Shown piece after piece: positions 1 to 9,491 of a stretch of 25,219 bases of DNA. Position 1 is the stretch's first letter. Each line of letters opens with the position of its first letter. The notes under the pieces were generated by a model. It was not told the origin of the DNA and ran no database searches. It worked only from the letters and a program-made list of their open reading frames with translations. The stretch lies in IMG/VR virus record IMGVR_UViG_3300021378_000146, positions 1 through 25,219 of that record. One strand, 5' to 3'. The translations under genes and the position numbers were made by a program. The DNA comes from a virus.

Positions 1-3000
1 CCCGATTTGCTTTTTGTTTGTTAAAATCAAAACCTTTTTCTAAATCATTCCAAAGAATATCATTACCTGAAGTGTAAGGAGCGGCTCCATAACGGCCTTC
101 CCACCAACTAGGTTTTTCAGAATATCCAATCATTTCCCACGGAGCAGTATGCGGACGATCTGTATCAAAAAACTTTTTGTAAATCCCTCTCCACGATCCT
201 GGTAAAGTTTCACCGTTAACTGTGTCTAAACCTGAGTTATGATTGTAGGAAAATATTTCCCCTTCTACTGATGTTGTATTATCTAGATAGTTTACTGAAT
301 ATAAGTTAGCCCAGTAATTAAAATCATCATCTAATACACTAGTAAATTGATCTAATGTAAAATCTGTTTTTCTAAATGCACCTGGTTTAAATTCAGTGTT
401 GTCAAATATATCTCTATTATATTCAACTTTGATATTGTTATAAATTCTTTTTTCTAATTCTAATAATAATTCATCTCGGTAATCATTAAACGTTTTAGTT
501 TTACTTCCATCATGCCCTTGAATAATTTTAGTAGGCTTAATATAAGTGTTATCTGTATAAATTTCTGGTGTATACTTTGGATATAATCCTAACTTTGTAG
601 GAGTACTAGGAATAATACTACCAATAGTATTATAATCATAAATTACTACACTATCACCTATTGCTGTTTTCTTAATAAGATTAACTGTGTTATCAATAGT
701 ATCAAAGTTATAATCAACACCATTAATTAAATGTTCACCGTTTAAGTAAACATATACACTTCTATTTGAATTAGTAGTTAGATTAAAGTTACTTTGTATT
801 CCAAAAATTTGTTGTTCAAATGTATTAACTTCGTATGTTGTAGGCGATAAAGATTTACCGTAGCCAGCCATATCACTGTAAAAGTAAGAATTGTTTGAGT
901 TTTGGTTTACAGACATACTATATAATATACTGTCTACATCATCTCTTGGAGCACCTGAAACTTCAATTGTTTCAAACATGTTTAAAAATTGTTGTTTGAA
1001 TACATTGTAATCAAGTGCATTTTTTCTTATAGATTTAATTACATTTGTTTCGCTGTCAACTAGTCCAAAAATTGCAGGTAATAAACTACCTTGGTGTTTT
1101 ACATAACGTGTTCCTGATTTATATAAGTTAGGAATATCTCTAGCATTTGATGTGTTGTTAAACTTACCAGTAACATTATTATTATTACTAAAAATAGTTC
1201 TAACATGATCAGTTACACTACCTAAAGTAAATGTAGTTAGGTCATTATTTTCACTGTTGTTAGTTAAGTTTATAGGCGCTTCGTAAAATCCAAACTGTGT
1301 AGGTACTTCATCAGTGGTAATTTTTATAGTAATTCTTTCGTCTGATGGAATAAATTCTACAGGATTTATATATAATTTTTTACCGTCATCACTTTTTGTT
1401 GTAGTAAATCCTGTATTAGGTTTTAGTATCGTTCCGGCATACTCAACAACAATGTCTTTTGCTGTTAGGTATAGTCCTGGATTAGTAATTGCTGTAACTT
1501 CAATTAATGTTGTTTCGGCGATTGTATCATTAAGTTGTATAACTTTTTGTCTAGTTTTAGTATCAACCAAACTCCATCCTGATTCAAATGTGTTTTCAGT
1601 TAAACTTTTGTTTACTTTAACAACACTGGCCGCTGTGTCTTGTAAAACATTTCCGTCAGTTGTAGAATATACAAAACTATCATTGTCCCAATCAAAGTTG
1701 AAACAAATATCACCAATGTTATTAACATTTTGATATGAAATTGGAAATCCTAAAACAGCATCATTTGCTCCGGTTCCTTGTTTGTAACTTAATAGTTTGT
1801 TACCAACAAAATTTTGTACGCCATATTTTGTATCAGTAAAACTAACACCGTTATTATCAAATAATTCAAACATCGGTGCTTGGTTAATTGTAGTTTTTTG
1901 TTGTCCTTTAATCCATGTTGTTCCATCAAAGTACCAACTAGTGCCTTTATTAGTTACACCGTCAGTAACAACAATACCTGTATTAGTTAAACCGCTTTCA
2001 ACTTCTTCTAAACGCAGTCTTGACTTTCCGCCATGTTTTACAAATGAAACTTCATAAATCTTTCCTGCTACAGTAATGTCAGGGTCTGCTGTAAATGTAA
2101 CACGCATACCTGTTGTTAAATCAACTTGGTCAACATAGTAACCTATTTGTCCTTCAACTTCACTAAATGCATCTGTTGTAACTGTGTCAATTACATCAAT
2201 GTTGCCTAAACCCTGTGTGGCAAAATTGTAAAGTTGCATGTTAGGCCTAAATTCAATAATAGGTCGTTTAGCACGTTGAGTTTCATCTAATACAATATTA
2301 GTATTATTATACTTGGCTGTTGCTTCAATAACTTCTTTATGAAACCATCTGTTATATCTTGACCAAGGATTCTTATCAATACTTGCTCTGTTAATACTAA
2401 CGTACTCTGGAGTTGTTGGTGTACTTTCTCCATCATCATATGGAGTGTCATCAAAACTATCTACATCAAACTCATAATCAAAATTTTGACTATAACCTTC
2501 TGGTGTATCAAACTCTGTTACTGGAGTAAGTGTAATTCCTGTTCCAACACCTTCAACATAATAATTTTTATTTTTATATTTTGACGGTGTTACATTTCCT
2601 GTAAAATTAACTTTTAATCCGTTAGTAAACACAACTCCATTAGAACTTGTGTACTCTGTTTTACCTAAAACTTCTGTAGGAATATCAATGTTTAACTCAT
2701 CAACTGCATCTTTAATTTCAAAAATACCTTGCATTGATTGATGATTAGCACAAGTATAGTAAAGTATGTCTGGTGCGCCTTTTGGAATAGTAAACACAAC
2801 TGTTCCGTTATCAGTACCGTTGTCTGTAACTCCGTCAGTGTATAAATCTGTATTACCTGTAGTTTTTGCAATTTTAATATTAAACGGATGTCCAGGCGCA
2901 TTTACTTCAAACTTATAAGTTGCACCTCTAAACAATTTAATTACAGGATTCTTTGAACTACCATCTGGCGTAAACACATAAGCACCTGAACTATCATTAG

Positions 3001-3523
3001 TAACAGTAAATGCACTTATGCTACCTTCTGCTAATCCTGTAACTGTTACTGGACTAGGACCTTGTGGCAACCAATAGTACTGTCTATAGTTTGCAATTTT
3101 ATCAAAGTCGATATGTGGGTTCCAAGCATAATATTTGCTAGAAAATAAATTGTTATGATTTTTTGTTTCGCTGTTAAAAAAATCTAACTGATTTAATAAA
3201 TCGTCATATGTTGCTAACCATTCTGTTCTATCATCAAAATCATCTCTGATTACAACACTAGGTAATAGGTTATAACGTCTACGATTAGATGTTGGTTCAG
3301 TAAGGTATCTATCCTCCGGCTTTACTGTTGGAGAATATCTACTTCCAACAAAACCGTTAATTTTTTCTAATTGACCTTTACTAATAAGTGTGTCAAATGT
3401 TGCTCCAAGAAACTTTTTATTTGCTTCCGTTCTAAAAAACATTGGAAGTAAATCAGCACTATTTCTAAACTTATCTTTATTGTCCTTGTTAACAGGAGCA
3501 TTGTTGTTGTCACTATATGCCAT
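1..3523 (-). CDS. Giant virion structural protein downstream of gp6 (gp7 position), 3' end outside window
   Basis: The minus-strand frame is open from ATG at 3523 to the window edge, giving at least 1174 codons with no stop. The start shares one base with the gp6 stop (TAATG), and a GGAGG ribosome-binding site lies 12 bases upstream, so translation is probably coupled to gp6. The N-terminal region (LLPMFFRTEANKKFLGATFD, then YRQYYWLPQGP near residue 150) resembles, from memory, long structural proteins of marine T4-like phages. In T4 the gene after 6 is 7, a baseplate wedge protein, but I cannot show homology to gp7. Residues about 165-272 look like a cupredoxin domain, with candidate copper ligands His212, Cys258, His261 and Met264 in a C-x2-H-x2-M pattern. 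The rest is rich in Asn, Thr and Asp, as in beta-rich fibre or baseplate proteins. Role in the baseplate or tail periphery is inferred from context. Confidence 0.85.
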   Translation of the reverse strand, partial: MAYSDNNNAPVNKDNKDKFRNSADLLPMFFRTEANKKFLGATFDTLISKGQLEKINGFVGSRYSPTVKPEDRYLTEPTSNRRRYNLLPSVVIRDDFDDRTEWLATYDDLLNQLDFFNSETKNHNNLFSSKYYAWNPHIDFDKIANYRQYYWLPQGPSPVTVTGLAEGSISAFTVTNDSSGAYVFTPDGSSKNPVIKLFRGATYKFEVNAPGHPFNIKIAKTTGNTDLYTDGVTDNGTDNGTVVFTIPKGAPDILYYTCANHQSMQGIFEIKDAVDELNIDIPTEVLGKTEYTSSNGVVFTNGLKVNFTGNVTPSKYKNKNYYVEGVGTGITLTPVTEFDTPEGYSQNFDYEFDVDSFDDTPYDDGESTPTTPEYVSINRASIDKNPWSRYNRWFHKEVIEATAKYNNTNIVLDETQRAKRPIIEFRPNMQLYNFATQGLGNIDVIDTVTTDAFSEVEGQIGYYVDQVDLTTGMRVTFTADPDITVAGKIYEVSFVKHGGKSRLRLEEVESGLTNTGIVVTDGVTNKGTSWYFDGTTWIKGQQKTTINQAPMFELFDNNGVSFTDTKYGVQNFVGNKLLSYKQGTGANDAVLGFPISYQNVNNIGDICFNFDWDNDSFVYSTTDGNVLQDTAASVVKVNKSLTENTFESGWSLVDTKTRQKVIQLNDTIAETTLIEVTAITNPGLYLTAKDIVVEYAGTILKPNTGFTTTKSDDGKKLYINPVEFIPSDERITIKITTDEVPTQFGFYEAPINLTNNSENNDLTTFTLGSVTDHVRTIFSNNNNVTGKFNNTSNARDIPNLYKSGTRYVKHQGSLLPAIFGLVDSETNVIKSIRKNALDYNVFKQQFLNMFETIEVSGAPRDDVDSILYSMSVNQNSNNSYFYSDMAGYGKSLSPTTYEVNTFEQQIFGIQSNFNLTTNSNRSVYVYLNGEHLINGVDYNFDTIDNTVNLIKKTAIGDSVVIYDYNTIGSIIPSTPTKLGLYPKYTPEIYTDNTYIKPTKIIQGHDGSKTKTFNDYRDELLLELEKRIYNNIKVEYNRDIFDNTEFKPGAFRKTDFTLDQFTSVLDDDFNYWANLYSVNYLDNTTSVEGEIFSYNHNSGLDTVNGETLPGSWRGIYKKFFDTDRPHTAPWEMIGYSEKPSWWEGRYGAAPYTSGNDILWNDLEKGFDFNKQKANR

Positions 3524-6500
3524 TAGTAATTAGAACCTCCGCTACTAGTGGTGTTGGTAGTACTTGTTGTACCTGTTGAAACAGTATTAGTTGTTGTAAC
3601 TATGTTTGTTGATGTAACTGCAACTGTTCCTACTTGTTCAACACTGCTAACAACATTACCTGATGCTTGTAAATTACTTGCTGTTACACTATCGATAATT
3701 TCTATATTATCAACAGTAGCACTGCTTACAAAAATTTCATCTGCTTTACTTTGTATCTGAAATAACGATCCAAAACTTTGTCCGTTACTTCTTGGCACAA
3801 TGACCATGTTTGCTAGGTCAGGTGCAAGATTGTTATGTACAAATGTTGCTAGTTCTGAAAAGTAAAATGTGTCACCAAAGTCCCAATTAGTTACATTAAA
3901 GAATGAATTAATTGCTTCAATTACACCACTTTTCAATTGGTTATCACTAATAGTGCTGTTTGGTCCTCTTACAATTTTGAATTGTGCTTGAAGATCTGTA
4001 TCAGCAGTGGTTCCAAATAATGGTCTGTATTTTACTGAATGGAATATTAATGTATCACTTATTGATTTTATTTTATTTAATTCAGGTTCAAATTGACTTC
4101 TAAGTTGTTCTGAACTTGGTGCTAATGGACGGTATCCTCCATTTACAAGCCATGTTCTAAAGTCATTGTCATATGACTCAGTTAACATATAGATATCTAT
4201 TAAATTAGTTTTACTAGGATCTAACCTTCTATCATTTTCTGCATTATGAATATACTGGAATTTAATATCTGATCTTCCTGGTTTTGCAAAGTATGTGTTG
4301 TTTAACTCTAGTACTCCTCTAGTTGCACTATAAGACTTAATAACATTTTCTGTAGAACTATAAAAGTAAAATAGTTGTCCATCGGTATAATCTGCAAGTG
4401 CTGGAATACTTGTTTCTTTATCAAAAATTATAAAATTACTTGCATCTACTTTTTTAGCAACTGTATAATTTCCAACAACAGTATTTTGGAAAAATACAAA
4501 TTTGTCTTGATATCCCCTAGCATCTGTTGATTCTGGTGCAACAACATTTATAAAACTATCTGGGTCATCAATCATTCCGTCATCATCTGAATCGTATAAG
4601 TTTACTTGTACTCTGTTCGTATCTTCAAACCCGTCTGTGTTTCTAATTGCTCCAGTAATTTCCCATGGATAATCTTTTGTTAAGATTGAACTAAGAATTG
4701 GATCTTCGTTTACTTTAAGAATTTTAATTTGATCCTTAATTACTAATCCTGTTTTAGGATCATATGTTTTTCCTGTAGCATCAACATAAAATTGTACAAG
4801 GTCTTGACTTTCAAACCTATAATCTAGTCCTCTGTATGAAACTGTGTATGTTTCACCGTCGGTTTCAAATAGTACAAGCCAACTCTTGTCTGCTTTAGTT
4901 CCTGATAAATCACCTTCTCTATCTAAACTAAATGGATCTAATGTATTAGCATTAGCATTAGCAATAATTTTCCATGTTAGCGTAGATTGATCATAACGCA
5001 ATCCAAAGTTTTTATTTGAAAATACTAAGTCAACTATTTCTGTTTCAATATCACTTGGTAAGTCTGTTACTATGTTAGGTACAATCTCACTTGGTATTGC
5101 TAGTGCTGGTACTTTCTCTGTAATTACAATTGGTCCTGTTCCGTCATCTAATGCACCTAGTCCACCGTTAGACCCGTCACCAATAACATTTGCAACTTTG
5201 ACCCAAATATAATCACTAGTTAATTTTGTTTTAGTTGTTGTAAGTTCTCCATTAGGTAGAAAATATCTACCACTTGGTGGAACAAATTTAATCATACTAT
5301 CAGTTGCAATAAACCTAAAGTTGTTTCCTGTAAATGAACCAACTGTAATAGGTGCGTTATTCACTGTGTTTCTAAAATATCCTGTTGATCCAAGACTTGT
5401 GTTTGTTGATTTAACCCAATCAATGTTTAATTCTGCTGTTTGTATTCTAGGAAATTTATCATAGTAAAAACTTTTAGTTCCTATGCCTGCAATAATAGGT
5501 TCAATATTATTTCTTAAAATACCTAATACATCATTTCTTGTACTAAATGTAAAATTAAAATCTATTTCGTAATCATTTTTATAAAGTATTCCATCATCAG
5601 CCATTATGTTTGTGCTGGAATATTTTCCAGTTGGATCTTTAATTTCATACTGTCTTGAAATACCACTACTTGCTCTGTTTACTGCTTTTGATTTAACAAC
5701 TTGTGGATTAGACGTTAAAGGTAAAGTGTTGTAGTCTTCACCTGTAATCATTCTGTTTTGTGTGTAATATGTTTGAGGCGCATTGTTTCTAATACTAGTG
5801 ACACTTTCTGTAGCACTAGCATTTGTAACTGTAGACTGCAACGCACATTGAACTGTTAGTGTATTTCTTTGTCCACTTTTTGAAGTGTAAGGAATATCAA
5901 CAATAATATTTTGCATGTCTGCTGGTCTAATTGTGTATGTTAACCCATTTGAAACTCTGTAGTAAACTCTGAACGAACCATTAGGTAAATCACCAAACGT
6001 TCCATCTGCAAAATTTAAACTAACTTTGTCTTGGTCTCTTGAAATTACAGAATAAATTTTTCTATTATCTTTTGCTTCTGAATTATAAATAGCGTTTGTT
6101 CCAACAACACTATCAAGTTTTGTCCATTGTTCTTTATAGTTTCCAAATTGATCTAATTCCCATAACCAAACATCATCGTTATTAATGTTAGGTGTGTTTA
6201 AATTAATTACTTCATTGTTAGAAGGATCTGAAATTGAAAACGGTGAAGTATAAGTTTCACCTTGTTTAAAGTTTAAAAAGAATCCTGTGTTTTCTGAACT
6301 ATTACCTCTCTTGTCATTTCTATATAATAATCCTAAAGTGTTTCCTGGCAATGGAGTTTCTTCAACTATATTACCTTGATTTAAATTAGCACTTACAATA
6401 TTAAATGATGTTTGTAACCCTGCAACAGTTTTACTAAATTTGTATGTTGGAATATCTGAATTAGTTGTATTAACTTTGTATTGATCTGTTTGAATTCCTC

Positions 6501-7038
6501 CAACTGCATCACTAGCATTTGGTTTTCCAAAAACAGTTGTCCCTTGGAAACTATTATTCATAATTGTATTGATCTGCTCTAACCAGTTTACATTTGAATC
6601 GTCATTCCATAAAATAAATCTATTACGTAACTGTGTTCCGTTACTGTCAGTTAAATTCTGTGTGGTTTGTATTCCTGTAATTTTTAATAGTCCTGTAGCA
6701 CATTGGTTACGTTTATTGTTATAACCTACTAATCTTGCAAGACGTAATACACTTTCTTTTTTCTGTGCTGTTTCAATAAAGTTTTCTCTAGCATTTAAGT
6801 CAACTCTATAAGATAAACTTTGCCCTAAAAATGCAATTACATCAATTAATGCAAGATATTCACTTGATTCAATATAATCGTTAAAATCTTCTGGATAATT
6901 TTTACGTAAGTAATTAATCATCGTCCTACGTATAGTAGGGAAATCGTAAGAACTAAAGTCAGCATCAGTGAAAGATCGATAGATCTTACTCCAATCCTGG
7001 TTTACTAAAAGTGAATTTTGTCTATCATAACTTGCCAT
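3523..7038 (-). CDS. 6: Baseplate wedge subunit gp6
   Basis: This 1171-residue protein is the gp6 type of baseplate wedge component, which in T4 forms the ring around the hub and rearranges during sheath contraction. The N-terminal 150 residues carry the recognisable gp6 pattern (RRTMINYLRKNYPEDFNDYI, then SSEYLALIDVIAFLGQSLSY and DLNARENFIETA). It is much longer than T4 gp6 (about 660 residues), so extra domains are present. Residues 816-827 read DSDDDGMIDDPD, a good EF-hand-type calcium loop. The last 50 or so residues are a Thr/Ser-rich low-complexity tail. It lies 39 bases after gp25 and its stop overlaps the next start. An AAGG ribosome-binding site sits about 11 bases before the ATG. 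Identity is confident; the roles of the added segments are unknown. Confidence 0.9.
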   Translation of the reverse strand: MASYDRQNSLLVNQDWSKIYRSFTDADFSSYDFPTIRRTMINYLRKNYPEDFNDYIESSEYLALIDVIAFLGQSLSYRVDLNARENFIETAQKKESVLRLARLVGYNNKRNQCATGLLKITGIQTTQNLTDSNGTQLRNRFILWNDDSNVNWLEQINTIMNNSFQGTTVFGKPNASDAVGGIQTDQYKVNTTNSDIPTYKFSKTVAGLQTSFNIVSANLNQGNIVEETPLPGNTLGLLYRNDKRGNSSENTGFFLNFKQGETYTSPFSISDPSNNEVINLNTPNINNDDVWLWELDQFGNYKEQWTKLDSVVGTNAIYNSEAKDNRKIYSVISRDQDKVSLNFADGTFGDLPNGSFRVYYRVSNGLTYTIRPADMQNIIVDIPYTSKSGQRNTLTVQCALQSTVTNASATESVTSIRNNAPQTYYTQNRMITGEDYNTLPLTSNPQVVKSKAVNRASSGISRQYEIKDPTGKYSSTNIMADDGILYKNDYEIDFNFTFSTRNDVLGILRNNIEPIIAGIGTKSFYYDKFPRIQTAELNIDWVKSTNTSLGSTGYFRNTVNNAPITVGSFTGNNFRFIATDSMIKFVPPSGRYFLPNGELTTTKTKLTSDYIWVKVANVIGDGSNGGLGALDDGTGPIVITEKVPALAIPSEIVPNIVTDLPSDIETEIVDLVFSNKNFGLRYDQSTLTWKIIANANANTLDPFSLDREGDLSGTKADKSWLVLFETDGETYTVSYRGLDYRFESQDLVQFYVDATGKTYDPKTGLVIKDQIKILKVNEDPILSSILTKDYPWEITGAIRNTDGFEDTNRVQVNLYDSDDDGMIDDPDSFINVVAPESTDARGYQDKFVFFQNTVVGNYTVAKKVDASNFIIFDKETSIPALADYTDGQLFYFYSSTENVIKSYSATRGVLELNNTYFAKPGRSDIKFQYIHNAENDRRLDPSKTNLIDIYMLTESYDNDFRTWLVNGGYRPLAPSSEQLRSQFEPELNKIKSISDTLIFHSVKYRPLFGTTADTDLQAQFKIVRGPNSTISDNQLKSGVIEAINSFFNVTNWDFGDTFYFSELATFVHNNLAPDLANMVIVPRSNGQSFGSLFQIQSKADEIFVSSATVDNIEIIDSVTASNLQASGNVVSSVEQVGTVAVTSTNIVTTTNTVSTGTTSTTNTTSSGGSNY

Positions 7039-7077: not shown

Positions 7078-7515
7078 TTATGCCATCGATAAGCCACTAT
7101 TTCGATCAAACGTATATACCATTTGTTCTAGTTGATTGTAGTCTTTAAAGTTAATTTCAATAACAATTTGTACACCAGTTTGCTGTTCAAAAATTGAAAT
7201 ATTTTCAACTAAAACCCTTGGATCTGATCTAAGGACTTCTTTAACGTCATTTTGTAATAATTCAGTTGTTTCTTCTGTTAACGGTTCGTGTATTAGATCC
7301 CATATAATACTACCAAAATTTGGATTGTAGATTTTCTCACCTTTTCTAATATTAAAGTGATTCAACAAATCCTGTTTGATTAAGTTTATATCGTATAATG
7401 AAAAACTCTTACTATCGTCACTAACCGTACTCGTGCCTTTGTAAATTTGACTAGTTTGCTGTGTTTGAACTACGTCTGTTTTTCCGTCTACATTGATTTC
7501 TTTATACTGTGCCAT
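7078..7515 (-). CDS. 25: Baseplate wedge subunit gp25
   Basis: This 145-residue protein matches the gp25-like family, sheath-initiating baseplate proteins shared by contractile phages and type VI secretion systems (T4 gp25 is about 132 residues). The diagnostic core is near residues 48-80: DLLNHFNIRKGEKIYNPNFG followed by SIIWDLIHEPLTEET. In this position gp25 would join the wedge to the first sheath ring. The first 35 residues are a hydrophilic extension. The gene follows gp5 by 17 bases and precedes gp6, matching a typical T4-like 5-25-6 order. The ribosome-binding site is weak (GTGGG), so translation may depend partly on readthrough from gp5. Confidence 0.92.
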   Translation of the reverse strand: MAQYKEINVDGKTDVVQTQQTSQIYKGTSTVSDDSKSFSLYDINLIKQDLLNHFNIRKGEKIYNPNFGSIIWDLIHEPLTEETTELLQNDVKEVLRSDPRVLVENISIFEQQTGVQIVIEINFKDYNQLEQMVYTFDRNSGLSMA

Positions 7516-7532
7516 ACTGCTATTTACCCACT

Positions 7533-9491
7533 TTACTTACCACTGGTTTCTCTATCTGTATTAGACGCTGTAGTTTCTATACCATCGCCTGCTTCATGTC
7601 CGGGCCAAGGTTCATGCATAGGTACACGCTTCATTATACTATACAACACATCGTCTGATTGATAGTATGCTTCATTCCACGGTTTACTAGGATCAGTAAT
7701 TGGATTTTCGTAAACACCAAAATCAGTACCATTTGCTCCGCCGACTGCACTTGTATCAAAAGGAAATGGTATGTTAGTTGCTAACGCACTTAACACAATA
7801 GGCTCTGCCGGTGGTTGTACTGGTCCAGGCAAGTTTAAGTGTACTGCACTTGTTCCATCTATGAACACAGTTTGAGGTGTTTGTATATTAATGTTATCTG
7901 CAAATGCTTTTAAATTAATAGATCCTGTAATACTTGTTGCATTTATTTTTCCTTTAGCATGTATATCAATATTACCAAGCATAGGTCCTGCAATATTTGT
8001 ATCTATTTTTATGTCACCATGCACAGTCTTAGGAACAACAGGCGGAATAATTTCCCAAAACAATCCCGGAGAAGGAGGAACTTTAACACCCGGAGTATTA
8101 GGTACCATGTTTTGTTGTAATGCTTTATAAAATAATGTACCAAATATTACAGTTTCGCCTTTGTAATATGTTCTTCCTGGGTTGTATGTTTGTGCATTCC
8201 AAATTTGATTTTCTAGTACGTTTGTTTTAATTTCTAAACCAGTACCGTGACTTTGTCTCATTCCATACTGCGAAACTATATCAATCTCTCCTGATCTAAT
8301 CTTTGTATTAATTTTGTTTGAAATATCTAAATTAGTTGTGTTTATACTTAGATCATTAGTTGACACTGTCATGTTTGTACCTACTAAATCTAAGAATCCT
8401 CTTGAATCTATTACAGTATCTTGTTTTCCAATTAGTCTTAATTGATCTGCTTCAATTTGTGTTCTTTCAATGCCTTTAATGTTAAGGTGTCTACCTGCTT
8501 CAAAATTAAGATCTCTATCTGCACGAAAATTAAAATCTGCTTCACTATGGATACTAACACTATCTTTAGCATACATATCAATTTTACCTTCTTTGGTCAT
8601 TTCAATCCAAGCAGTACCATTTTGATTACCGATATAAACCATCTCTGATGTATCATGAAATAATATTTGTGCACCTTTACTTGATCTTATTCTTACTAGA
8701 TTATTGTTTCCTCCAGTATCGCCGTCATCCATAACAAATGTATGACCGCCTAGTCTTGTTAGGTTCATAGGTTTTTTAGTGGCTACGCCGCCGGTATCTA
8801 TAGTTGGTATAAGATCCTGTGATTCTCCTACTCCGCCTGGAGTATTAAATCCAATCATTTTAGAATCGTTATCTCTAAGAATAGATGATGTTGATGATCC
8901 CCTAATTGTATCTACTAACAGTCCTTGTTTTTTTAAAACTTTTGCAAAAGGATGAATTGCACGTTTTGCTTTATCTGTAGTTACACGACCATCATAGGTA
9001 CTAGCATTTTTTTCACTTGCTGGCATTCCAACAGGACTAGCATACTCGTCTAAGTCTGATTTTTTACCAGTAACTTGATCACTACGTGCTGGTTCTGGAA
9101 TAGTTTGTCCTAGTCCTGGTGGCATAATAGCACCTAACCAAACTCCTCTAGTTGAATCTTTGTTTGGTGTTGCTATAATACCTCTAGTACCAATTTGCGG
9201 TGTAGGTACAACCATACCACTTGCTGTTTGAGTATCTTCAAACGAATCAATATTATCTCCGCCAGCATTAACGGGTTTGTATGAAGCATGAGGACTGAGC
9301 ATCATCACTTCGACTTCACCTTGATCATTATAGTCATTACCTATACGTACAACTCTAATAGTACCTTGACCGCCAGTACCTGTTACTTCTGCTTCAGATA
9401 TGCTAGAAAATAAACCAAACTCAAGTTCTGATCTATCTTTAGGTCGTTGTACCCTATTAGTTTTTTGACTTTTTAGAAAAACTCCACTCAT
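7533..9491 (-). CDS. 5: Baseplate central spike/hub protein gp5 without lysozyme domain
   Basis: This 652-residue protein has the gp5/VgrG plan. Residues about 30-125 form an OB-fold-like region (TIRVVRIGNDYNDQGEVEVM, then GTRGIIATPNKDSTRGVWLG). Residues about 245-430 and 490-560 are short repeating strands typical of the trimeric beta-helix needle (KIDMYAKDSVSIHSEADFNF, DLNFEAGRHLNIKG). No T4-lysozyme-like domain is visible between the OB fold and the helix, unlike T4 gp5. Residues about 430-482 interrupt the helix with a compact module resembling carbohydrate-binding family 5/12 (W431, YNPGRTYYKGETVIFG, FYKALQQN, W479). The start overlaps the previous stop as ATGA and has an AAGGA ribosome-binding site. 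It should form the membrane-piercing tip; cell-wall digestion would need another protein. Confidence 0.88.
   Translation of the reverse strand: MSGVFLKSQKTNRVQRPKDRSELEFGLFSSISEAEVTGTGGQGTIRVVRIGNDYNDQGEVEVMMLSPHASYKPVNAGGDNIDSFEDTQTASGMVVPTPQIGTRGIIATPNKDSTRGVWLGAIMPPGLGQTIPEPARSDQVTGKKSDLDEYASPVGMPASEKNASTYDGRVTTDKAKRAIHPFAKVLKKQGLLVDTIRGSSTSSILRDNDSKMIGFNTPGGVGESQDLIPTIDTGGVATKKPMNLTRLGGHTFVMDDGDTGGNNNLVRIRSSKGAQILFHDTSEMVYIGNQNGTAWIEMTKEGKIDMYAKDSVSIHSEADFNFRADRDLNFEAGRHLNIKGIERTQIEADQLRLIGKQDTVIDSRGFLDLVGTNMTVSTNDLSINTTNLDISNKINTKIRSGEIDIVSQYGMRQSHGTGLEIKTNVLENQIWNAQTYNPGRTYYKGETVIFGTLFYKALQQNMVPNTPGVKVPPSPGLFWEIIPPVVPKTVHGDIKIDTNIAGPMLGNIDIHAKGKINATSITGSINLKAFADNINIQTPQTVFIDGTSAVHLNLPGPVQPPAEPIVLSALATNIPFPFDTSAVGGANGTDFGVYENPITDPSKPWNEAYYQSDDVLYSIMKRVPMHEPWPGHEAGDGIETTASNTDRETSGK

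What the first reader, a model, noticed from the sequence alone, without database searches (positions are those of the whole stretch)
2708..3031. Cupredoxin (type-1 copper) domain inside a giant baseplate-linked protein
Residues about 165-272 have a cupredoxin-like pattern: a strand with GHPF (His212), then YYTCANHQSMQG giving Cys258, His261 and Met264. C-x2-H-x2-M is the ligand spacing of amicyanin, and all four ligands of a type-1 site are present. A copper or structural metal site in the baseplate periphery would be unusual; it might bind copper, stabilise the particle or help contact the host surface. The family assignment is by motif only, and the domain may have lost metal binding.
Basis: partly seen in the sequence, partly recalled or inferred. 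Interest (0 to 1): 0.7.

Follow-up and report, generated by a model that had tools for sequence, protein, structure and literature searches.

The report
Copper-protein domain in phage baseplate
A giant baseplate protein of an uncultured marine phage carries a domain that is predicted to fold like the small blue copper proteins and keeps all four copper-binding residues; the same module recurs across marine phage tails, and a large branch of related phages has kept the fold but lost the whole metal site, so a metal bound by the virus particle is plausible but unproven.

Summary
Residues 165-272 of a minus-strand ORF (window 2-3523, open at the contig end) contain H212, C258, H261 and M264. AlphaFold2 gives a confident beta-sandwich whose best solved matches are all cupredoxins (rusticyanin Z 10-11.5, rmsd 2.2 A). 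A profile comparison independently aligns GHPF, Cys and Met with azurin's ligands.

The domain is not a curiosity of this phage. It matches 297 phage records, almost all marine cyanophages, often at the gp9 C-terminus, and all 15 phages read keep the four ligands. Secreted bacterial proteins share it. The giant protein itself is jumbo-phage-like; the characterised jumbo phages read lack the domain.

New result: sampled by backbone, nearly every marine relative has a cupredoxin fold at this site, but many have lost the site. Cys/His/Met are all-or-none in 104 proteins (51 all, 53 none, 0 partial), with only two changes on the tree. A ligand-less relative still folds as a cupredoxin.

Best reading: a displayed structural or host-contact module with a real type-1-like metal site in this clade; copper is likely, not shown. 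Redox chemistry is unsupported. No paper in the library searched describes cupredoxins in phage tails.

The parts
2..3523 (-). First 1174 aa of a giant baseplate-region structural protein (runs off the contig; relatives on longer contigs have open frames of 4264-4906 aa)
   Evidence: phrog_10938 virion structural protein E 4e-128; homology to jumbo-phage structural proteins
2699..3061 (-). Cupredoxin-like domain, residues 155-275
   Evidence: AF2 model and fold searches; phrog_677 C-terminus 8e-24; profile comparison with azurins
2888..2890 (-). H212, first predicted type-1 ligand (GHPF)
   Evidence: aligned to azurin GHNW; His in 49 of 51 homologues that have the C/H/M triad
2750..2752 (-). 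C258, predicted type-1 thiolate ligand
2741..2743 (-). H261, second predicted histidine ligand
2732..2734 (-). M264, predicted axial ligand
3071..3448 (-). Backbone segment before the domain (residues 26-151, ending NYRQYYW), shared with jumbo phages that lack the domain
1664..2671 (-). Backbone segment after the domain (residues 285-620), used with the upstream segment for the tree
3523..7038 (-). gp6-like baseplate wedge protein, immediately upstream gene
   Evidence: phrog_10646 baseplate wedge subunit E 3e-297
7078..7515 (-). gp25-like baseplate wedge protein / sheath initiator
   Evidence: PF04965 E 1e-9 over cut-off
7533..9491 (-). gp5-like baseplate hub/spike protein
   Evidence: phrog_13211 E 2e-20

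Best explanation
The domain is a cupredoxin module carried inside a giant wedge-type baseplate protein, probably displayed at the baseplate periphery. Its C-x2-H-x2-M loop and GHPF histidine form a type-1-like site that most likely binds a copper ion (possibly another soft metal), which pins the ligand loop and rigidifies the module. The module most likely serves particle stability or contact with the host surface, not redox catalysis. Shown by computation: the predicted fold, ligand identity and placement, conservation of the site as one unit, its absence from two clades with the fold kept, and absence of the domain from jumbo phages with the same backbone. Inferred: that metal is bound, that it is copper, that the domain is exposed, and what it does.
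For: AF2 pLDDT 85.7, pTM 0.80; 103 PDB hits at E <= 0.001, the 50 listed all cupredoxin-fold proteins, rusticyanin Z 10-11.5 at rmsd 2.2 A over 102 residues. Profile of the domain against bacterial azurins: E 5e-6 to 7e-5, score 32 versus at most 19.7 for 60 column shuffles, aligning GHPF with GHNW, Cys with Cys, Met with Met. C/H/M all present in 51, all absent in 53, never partial in 104 proteins at under 90% identity; first His 49/51 versus 20/53. Only 2 changes of the triad on the backbone tree but 10 of the first His, as expected if the His is constrained mainly where the triad exists. 15 of 15 other phages and nearly all of about 60 cellular domains keep the site. No domain in PA5oct, SCTP-2, Munch, CBB, GAP32 at the same backbone position.
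Against: No measurement of metal anywhere in this family. Half of the sampled giants do without the site, so metal is not essential to the protein. The residue after the first His is Pro, not the Asn usual in plastocyanin, azurin and amicyanin (family knowledge). Two members keep C/H/M but have Phe or Lys in place of the first His (L033, L036). Phage tails assemble in the cytoplasm, where free copper is scarce (general knowledge), so loading would have to occur elsewhere. Pfam's cupredoxin models do not recognise the window's domain. Exposure of the domain is not shown.
Confidence: 0.6

Rival explanations
1. Fold-only module: the domain is a cupredoxin-shaped decoration or adhesin, like the Ig-like domains known from phage tails, and the four residues are kept for packing or by ancestry, with no metal bound in the virion.
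For: Fold kept without the site in 53 of 104 giants; the ligand-less relative L274 still models as a cupredoxin, Z 10.9. The module sits in many different tail proteins.
Against: Cys, His and Met are never lost singly and are invariant over long branches wherever present; packing alone would hardly link three residues this way. Only two changes on the tree, however, so the link rests on few independent events.
Confidence: 0.2
2. The site binds zinc or Cu(I) acquired in the host cytoplasm as a purely structural metal.
For: Tail proteins fold in the cytoplasm, where zinc is available and copper is not; type-1 sites can take up zinc (general knowledge). The ligand set is the same.
Against: Cys-His-His-Met with the amicyanin-type loop is the classic copper set; structural zinc sites rarely use Met.
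Confidence: 0.12
3. The copper site takes part in host recognition, a copper counterpart of the proposed 'Trojan/Ferrojan horse' use of iron in phage tails: the domain docks on a copper-uptake or copper-protein receptor.
For: Iron-binding HxH motifs in tail fibres of T4 and marine phages have been proposed to use siderophore receptors (PMC11705849). The module occurs in gp9, fibres and baseplate proteins.
Against: No receptor evidence. Many relatives of the same giant protein lack the site while keeping the domain.
Confidence: 0.05
4. Not a cupredoxin: another beta-sandwich (Ig, PPC or CBM-like) with a chance C..H..M motif.
For: Sub-threshold Pfam hits to PPC, CBM_4_9 and Ig models.
Against: All these are below cut-off; the fold and profile matches are to cupredoxins and the ligands align; motif chance is about 1e-4 or less.
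Confidence: 0.03

Closest known systems
Type-1 copper cupredoxins (rusticyanin, azurin, pseudoazurin, amicyanin, plastocyanin)
   Same: Predicted fold; His + Cys-x2-His-x2-Met ligand set with amicyanin-like spacing; GHPF aligns with azurin GHNW
   Different: Built into a giant phage baseplate protein; Pro instead of Asn after the first His; no electron-transfer partner known; metal not shown; sequence identity only about 14-24% to the solved matches
C-terminal domain of T4-like cyanophage gp9 (phrog_677, 'baseplate wedge tail fiber protein connector')
   Same: Homologous domain, 8e-24, with all four ligands in the phages read
   Different: There it ends a much smaller protein; here it is an internal domain of a giant protein with a different, jumbo-like backbone
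Pfam PF25489 (At5g54830-like domain)
   Same: 30 of 43 aligned members match weakly (best 9e-7); one bacterial relative (L192) scores above the cut-off, so this model overlaps the family
   Different: The window's domain itself is below the cut-off (14 bits versus 27)
Secreted and lipoprotein-like cupredoxin-domain proteins of Flavobacteriia, Acidobacteria, Myxococcota and others
   Same: Up to about 50% identity to the window domain, same ligands, profile match 6e-46
   Different: Cellular and apparently secreted; small proteins or C-terminal domains of larger ones
HxH iron sites of T4 gp37 and marine phage fibres
   Same: A metal site in a phage adsorption apparatus
   Different: Different fold, ligands and metal; trimeric fibre
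Giant structural proteins of jumbo phages Atu_ph07, Phosso, PA5oct, SCTP-2, GAP32/CBB/Munch
   Same: Homologous backbone and gene order after gp6
   Different: No cupredoxin domain recognised at this site (a different stretch of similar length in Phosso and Atu_ph07)

Membership tests
Cupredoxin fold | Greek-key beta-sandwich of about eight strands | tested here: met
   AF2 model, 9 strands; rusticyanin Z 10-11.5, rmsd 2.2 A over 102 residues. A prediction, not a solved structure
Cupredoxin superfamily (homology) | Sequence-profile relationship to bona fide cupredoxins | tested here: met
   hhalign with azurins E 5e-6 to 7e-5, score 32 against a shuffle maximum of 19.7; moderate probability (63-70%)
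Type-1 copper site | His, Cys, His, (Met) ligands in the canonical order and loops | tested here: met
   H212, C258, H261, M264; placed in the two ligand loops by the model and by alignment to azurin
Type-1 copper site | Ligand side chains within bonding distance of one metal | not testable with these tools
   No model coordinates are returned
Type-1 copper site | Binds copper; blue or green colour, typical EPR | not testable with these tools
   Needs the protein
Pfam Cupredoxin_1 / Copper-bind | Score over the curated cut-off | tested here: not met
   No hit for the window; single relatives at E about 0.1. So it is not a member of these Pfam families as drawn
Pfam PF25489 At5g54830-like domain | Score over the curated cut-off (27 bits) | tested here: not met
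   Window 14.4 bits; relative L192 54.3 bits
phrog_677 C-terminal domain (cyanophage gp9) | Significant match to the C-terminal part of the profile | tested here: met
   8e-24, profile 302-411 of 412; the rest of the gp9 profile does not match, so the protein is not a gp9
Plastocyanin PetE (electron carrier) | Single secreted domain with plastocyanin sequence | tested here: not met
   Internal domain of a giant structural protein; no PetE-family hit

The most novel reading that the evidence does not exclude
Marine T4-like and jumbo-like phages carry virion-borne type-1 copper sites on their baseplates and fibres, and use the bound copper in adsorption, so that copper rather than only iron takes part in phage-host contact in the ocean; two clades of this giant protein have since replaced the copper-dependent contact with a metal-free one.
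Probability: 0.15. Interest if true: 0.85.

Novelty: new variant of a known kind. Interest (0 to 1): 0.58.

Why it matters
If the site binds copper, a very common group of marine phages are copper proteins, which bears on how tails are stabilised, on host recognition and on trace-metal budgets of viruses. Even without metal, the all-or-none state of the triad on a retained fold gives a natural experiment: related giant proteins with and without the site at the same position. It also matters for annotation: gp9-type hits can come from the cupredoxin domain alone, which bacteria share.

Tried and rejected
phmmer of the domain against PDB sequences found no cupredoxin; the 43-row profile found only weak hits, among them a laccase at 0.019 and azurin 2xv0 at 1.1. 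PDB sequence searches with the giant protein and gp6 gave nothing. Pfam PPC, CBM and Ig hits were sub-threshold and rejected. PF13473 in the window's record: no match; PF25489 in the window's record and the control genomes: no match. Profile comparison with two plastocyanin-like proteins failed (two rows only), and the ligand-less profile does not match azurins although its modelled fold does. My first view, that the ligands are simply conserved, came from loci chosen by the domain itself; sampling by backbone overturned it. The independent-pairs test on the tree had only 2 usable pairs and is uninformative. Literature: no paper linking cupredoxin with baseplate or cyanophage tails (open-licence PMC only). 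Searches failed on wrong coordinates.

Full report
Observation. The minus-strand ORF at 2-3523 starts with ATG and runs off the contig. C-x2-H-x2-M turned up in 2 of 20,000 shuffles of this protein, never with a suitably placed upstream His. The domain occurs once in the window.

Context. The window is a 25,219-base IMG/VR virus record. Reading down the minus strand, gp5-like hub, gp25-like and gp6-like wedge genes precede the giant protein, a T4-type baseplate cluster. Gp6 and the giant protein are closest, among named phages, to jumbo phages such as Atu_ph07, Phosso, PA5oct-like and RaK2-like phages. On longer contigs the open frame is 4264-4906 aa, so the window holds only about the first quarter. 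The PA5oct homologue bears the record note ESI-MS/MS, consistent with a virion protein; PA5oct itself lacks the domain.

Fold. A 43-sequence alignment of window and viral-contig domains gave an AF2 model with pLDDT 85.7 and pTM 0.80. Foldseek's top PDB hits are all cupredoxins, rusticyanin first at 4e-6; VIA-align gives rusticyanin Z 10-11.5 with rmsd 2.2 A over 102 residues, then cupredoxin domains of nitrite reductases and small laccases. In the model the first His lies between strands 53-59 and 65-68, and Cys, His and Met lie at the end of strand 104-109 and in the following loop. Distances were not available. Profile-profile comparison with azurins collected from bacterial genomes gave E 5e-6 to 7e-5 and score 32, against a maximum of 19.7 for 60 column-shuffled controls and 21 for the reversed alignment; it aligned GHPF with GHNW, Cys with Cys and Met with Met, the middle His being offset by the different loop length.

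A widespread module. The domain matches the last quarter of phrog_677, cyanophage gp9, and 297 phage records, nearly all cyanophages. Fifteen phages read directly, covering gp9, fibre, podovirus and structural proteins, all keep the His and C-x2-H-x2-M. A genome scan found 57 loci; the first few (such as L146-L149 and L151) look like phage contigs binned with MAGs, and the rest include apparently secreted or lipoprotein-like bacterial proteins up to about 50% identical. Their profile matches the phage one at 6e-46.

Insert in the giant protein. Aligned to jumbo relatives, the domain lies between the conserved NYRQYYW segment and the following backbone. PA5oct, SCTP-2, Munch, CBB and GAP32 lack it; Phosso and Atu_ph07 have a different stretch of similar length.

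The metal site comes and goes as one unit. Loci chosen by the domain favour intact sites, so the protein was sampled again by its N-terminal backbone. Of 80 loci, 78 have the domain (2 are cut by the contig end), but only 23 have C-x2-H-x2-M-x-G. In the others the same loop reads, for example, YYISKNDIDTSG. Some also carry an insert of about 140 aa before the last strand, which is retained as LYYQD...G. Combining both samples at under 90% identity, 51 of 104 have all of Cys, His and Met, 53 have none, and none is partial; the first His is kept in 49 of 51 and 20 of 53. The 51:53 ratio is not a population frequency, as part of the sample was chosen by the domain. On a tree of the flanking backbone the triad needs two changes and the first His ten. 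Because the relatives outside this gene keep the site, two losses are the simpler reading, but the tree is unrooted. A ligand-less relative (L274) modelled separately, with lower confidence (pLDDT 71.8, pTM 0.62), is still nearest to cupredoxins, Z 10.9.

Mechanism. The fold is what this position keeps; the metal site is an added property held under joint constraint in some clades. I take it as a metal-stabilised, displayed module, most likely copper-binding, for particle stability or host contact. Redox catalysis has no support. Cytoplasmic assembly makes zinc, or late loading with copper, real alternatives. Iron in phage fibres (PMC11705849) is an analogy, not evidence.

Novelty. The fold and site are known; their place in phage baseplates and fibres was not found described in the library searched, which holds open-licence PMC papers only. 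I call it a new variant of a known kind.

Noticed in passing
L056:4830-5336 (S-SCSM2R, XQU50115.1): Annotated 'PetE', but it is a 168-aa protein with this cupredoxin domain next to peptidase-S8 and FhaB-like genes; probably a structural protein, not host-type plastocyanin.
   Followed up: partly
phrog_677; L162, L150, L161, L163, L154: Bacterial secreted-type cupredoxin-like proteins match the gp9 profile at 1e-24 to 1e-36 through this domain, so gp9-type hits can misidentify bacterial genes as viral.
   Followed up: partly
L054, 1721-aa ORF (Syn33 baseplate wedge subunit): Weak further cupredoxin-like stretches (YYYCKVHRYMSG and another without the motif), suggesting several copies in one cyanophage wedge protein.
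   Followed up: no
L039, L043, L041, L040, L037, L046 and relatives: An insert of about 140 aa sits before the last strand of the ligand-less domain in one clade; its fold and role are unknown.
   Followed up: no
L033, L036: Keep Cys/His/Met but have Phe or Lys at the first His position; a possible three-ligand or altered site.
   Followed up: no
L138, L139 (Phosso, Atu_ph07): A different stretch of similar length occupies the domain's site in the giant protein; not modelled.
   Followed up: no
window 18296-18742: 148-aa plus-strand ORF with FVYLITNTTNDRKYVGKK, resembling a GIY-YIG nuclease motif by eye.
   Followed up: no
BFVD hits, Pithovirus and Marseillevirus proteins: Small 'beta-sandwich proteins' of giant eukaryotic viruses match the model structurally at about 1e-7 to 1e-6.
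   Followed up: no
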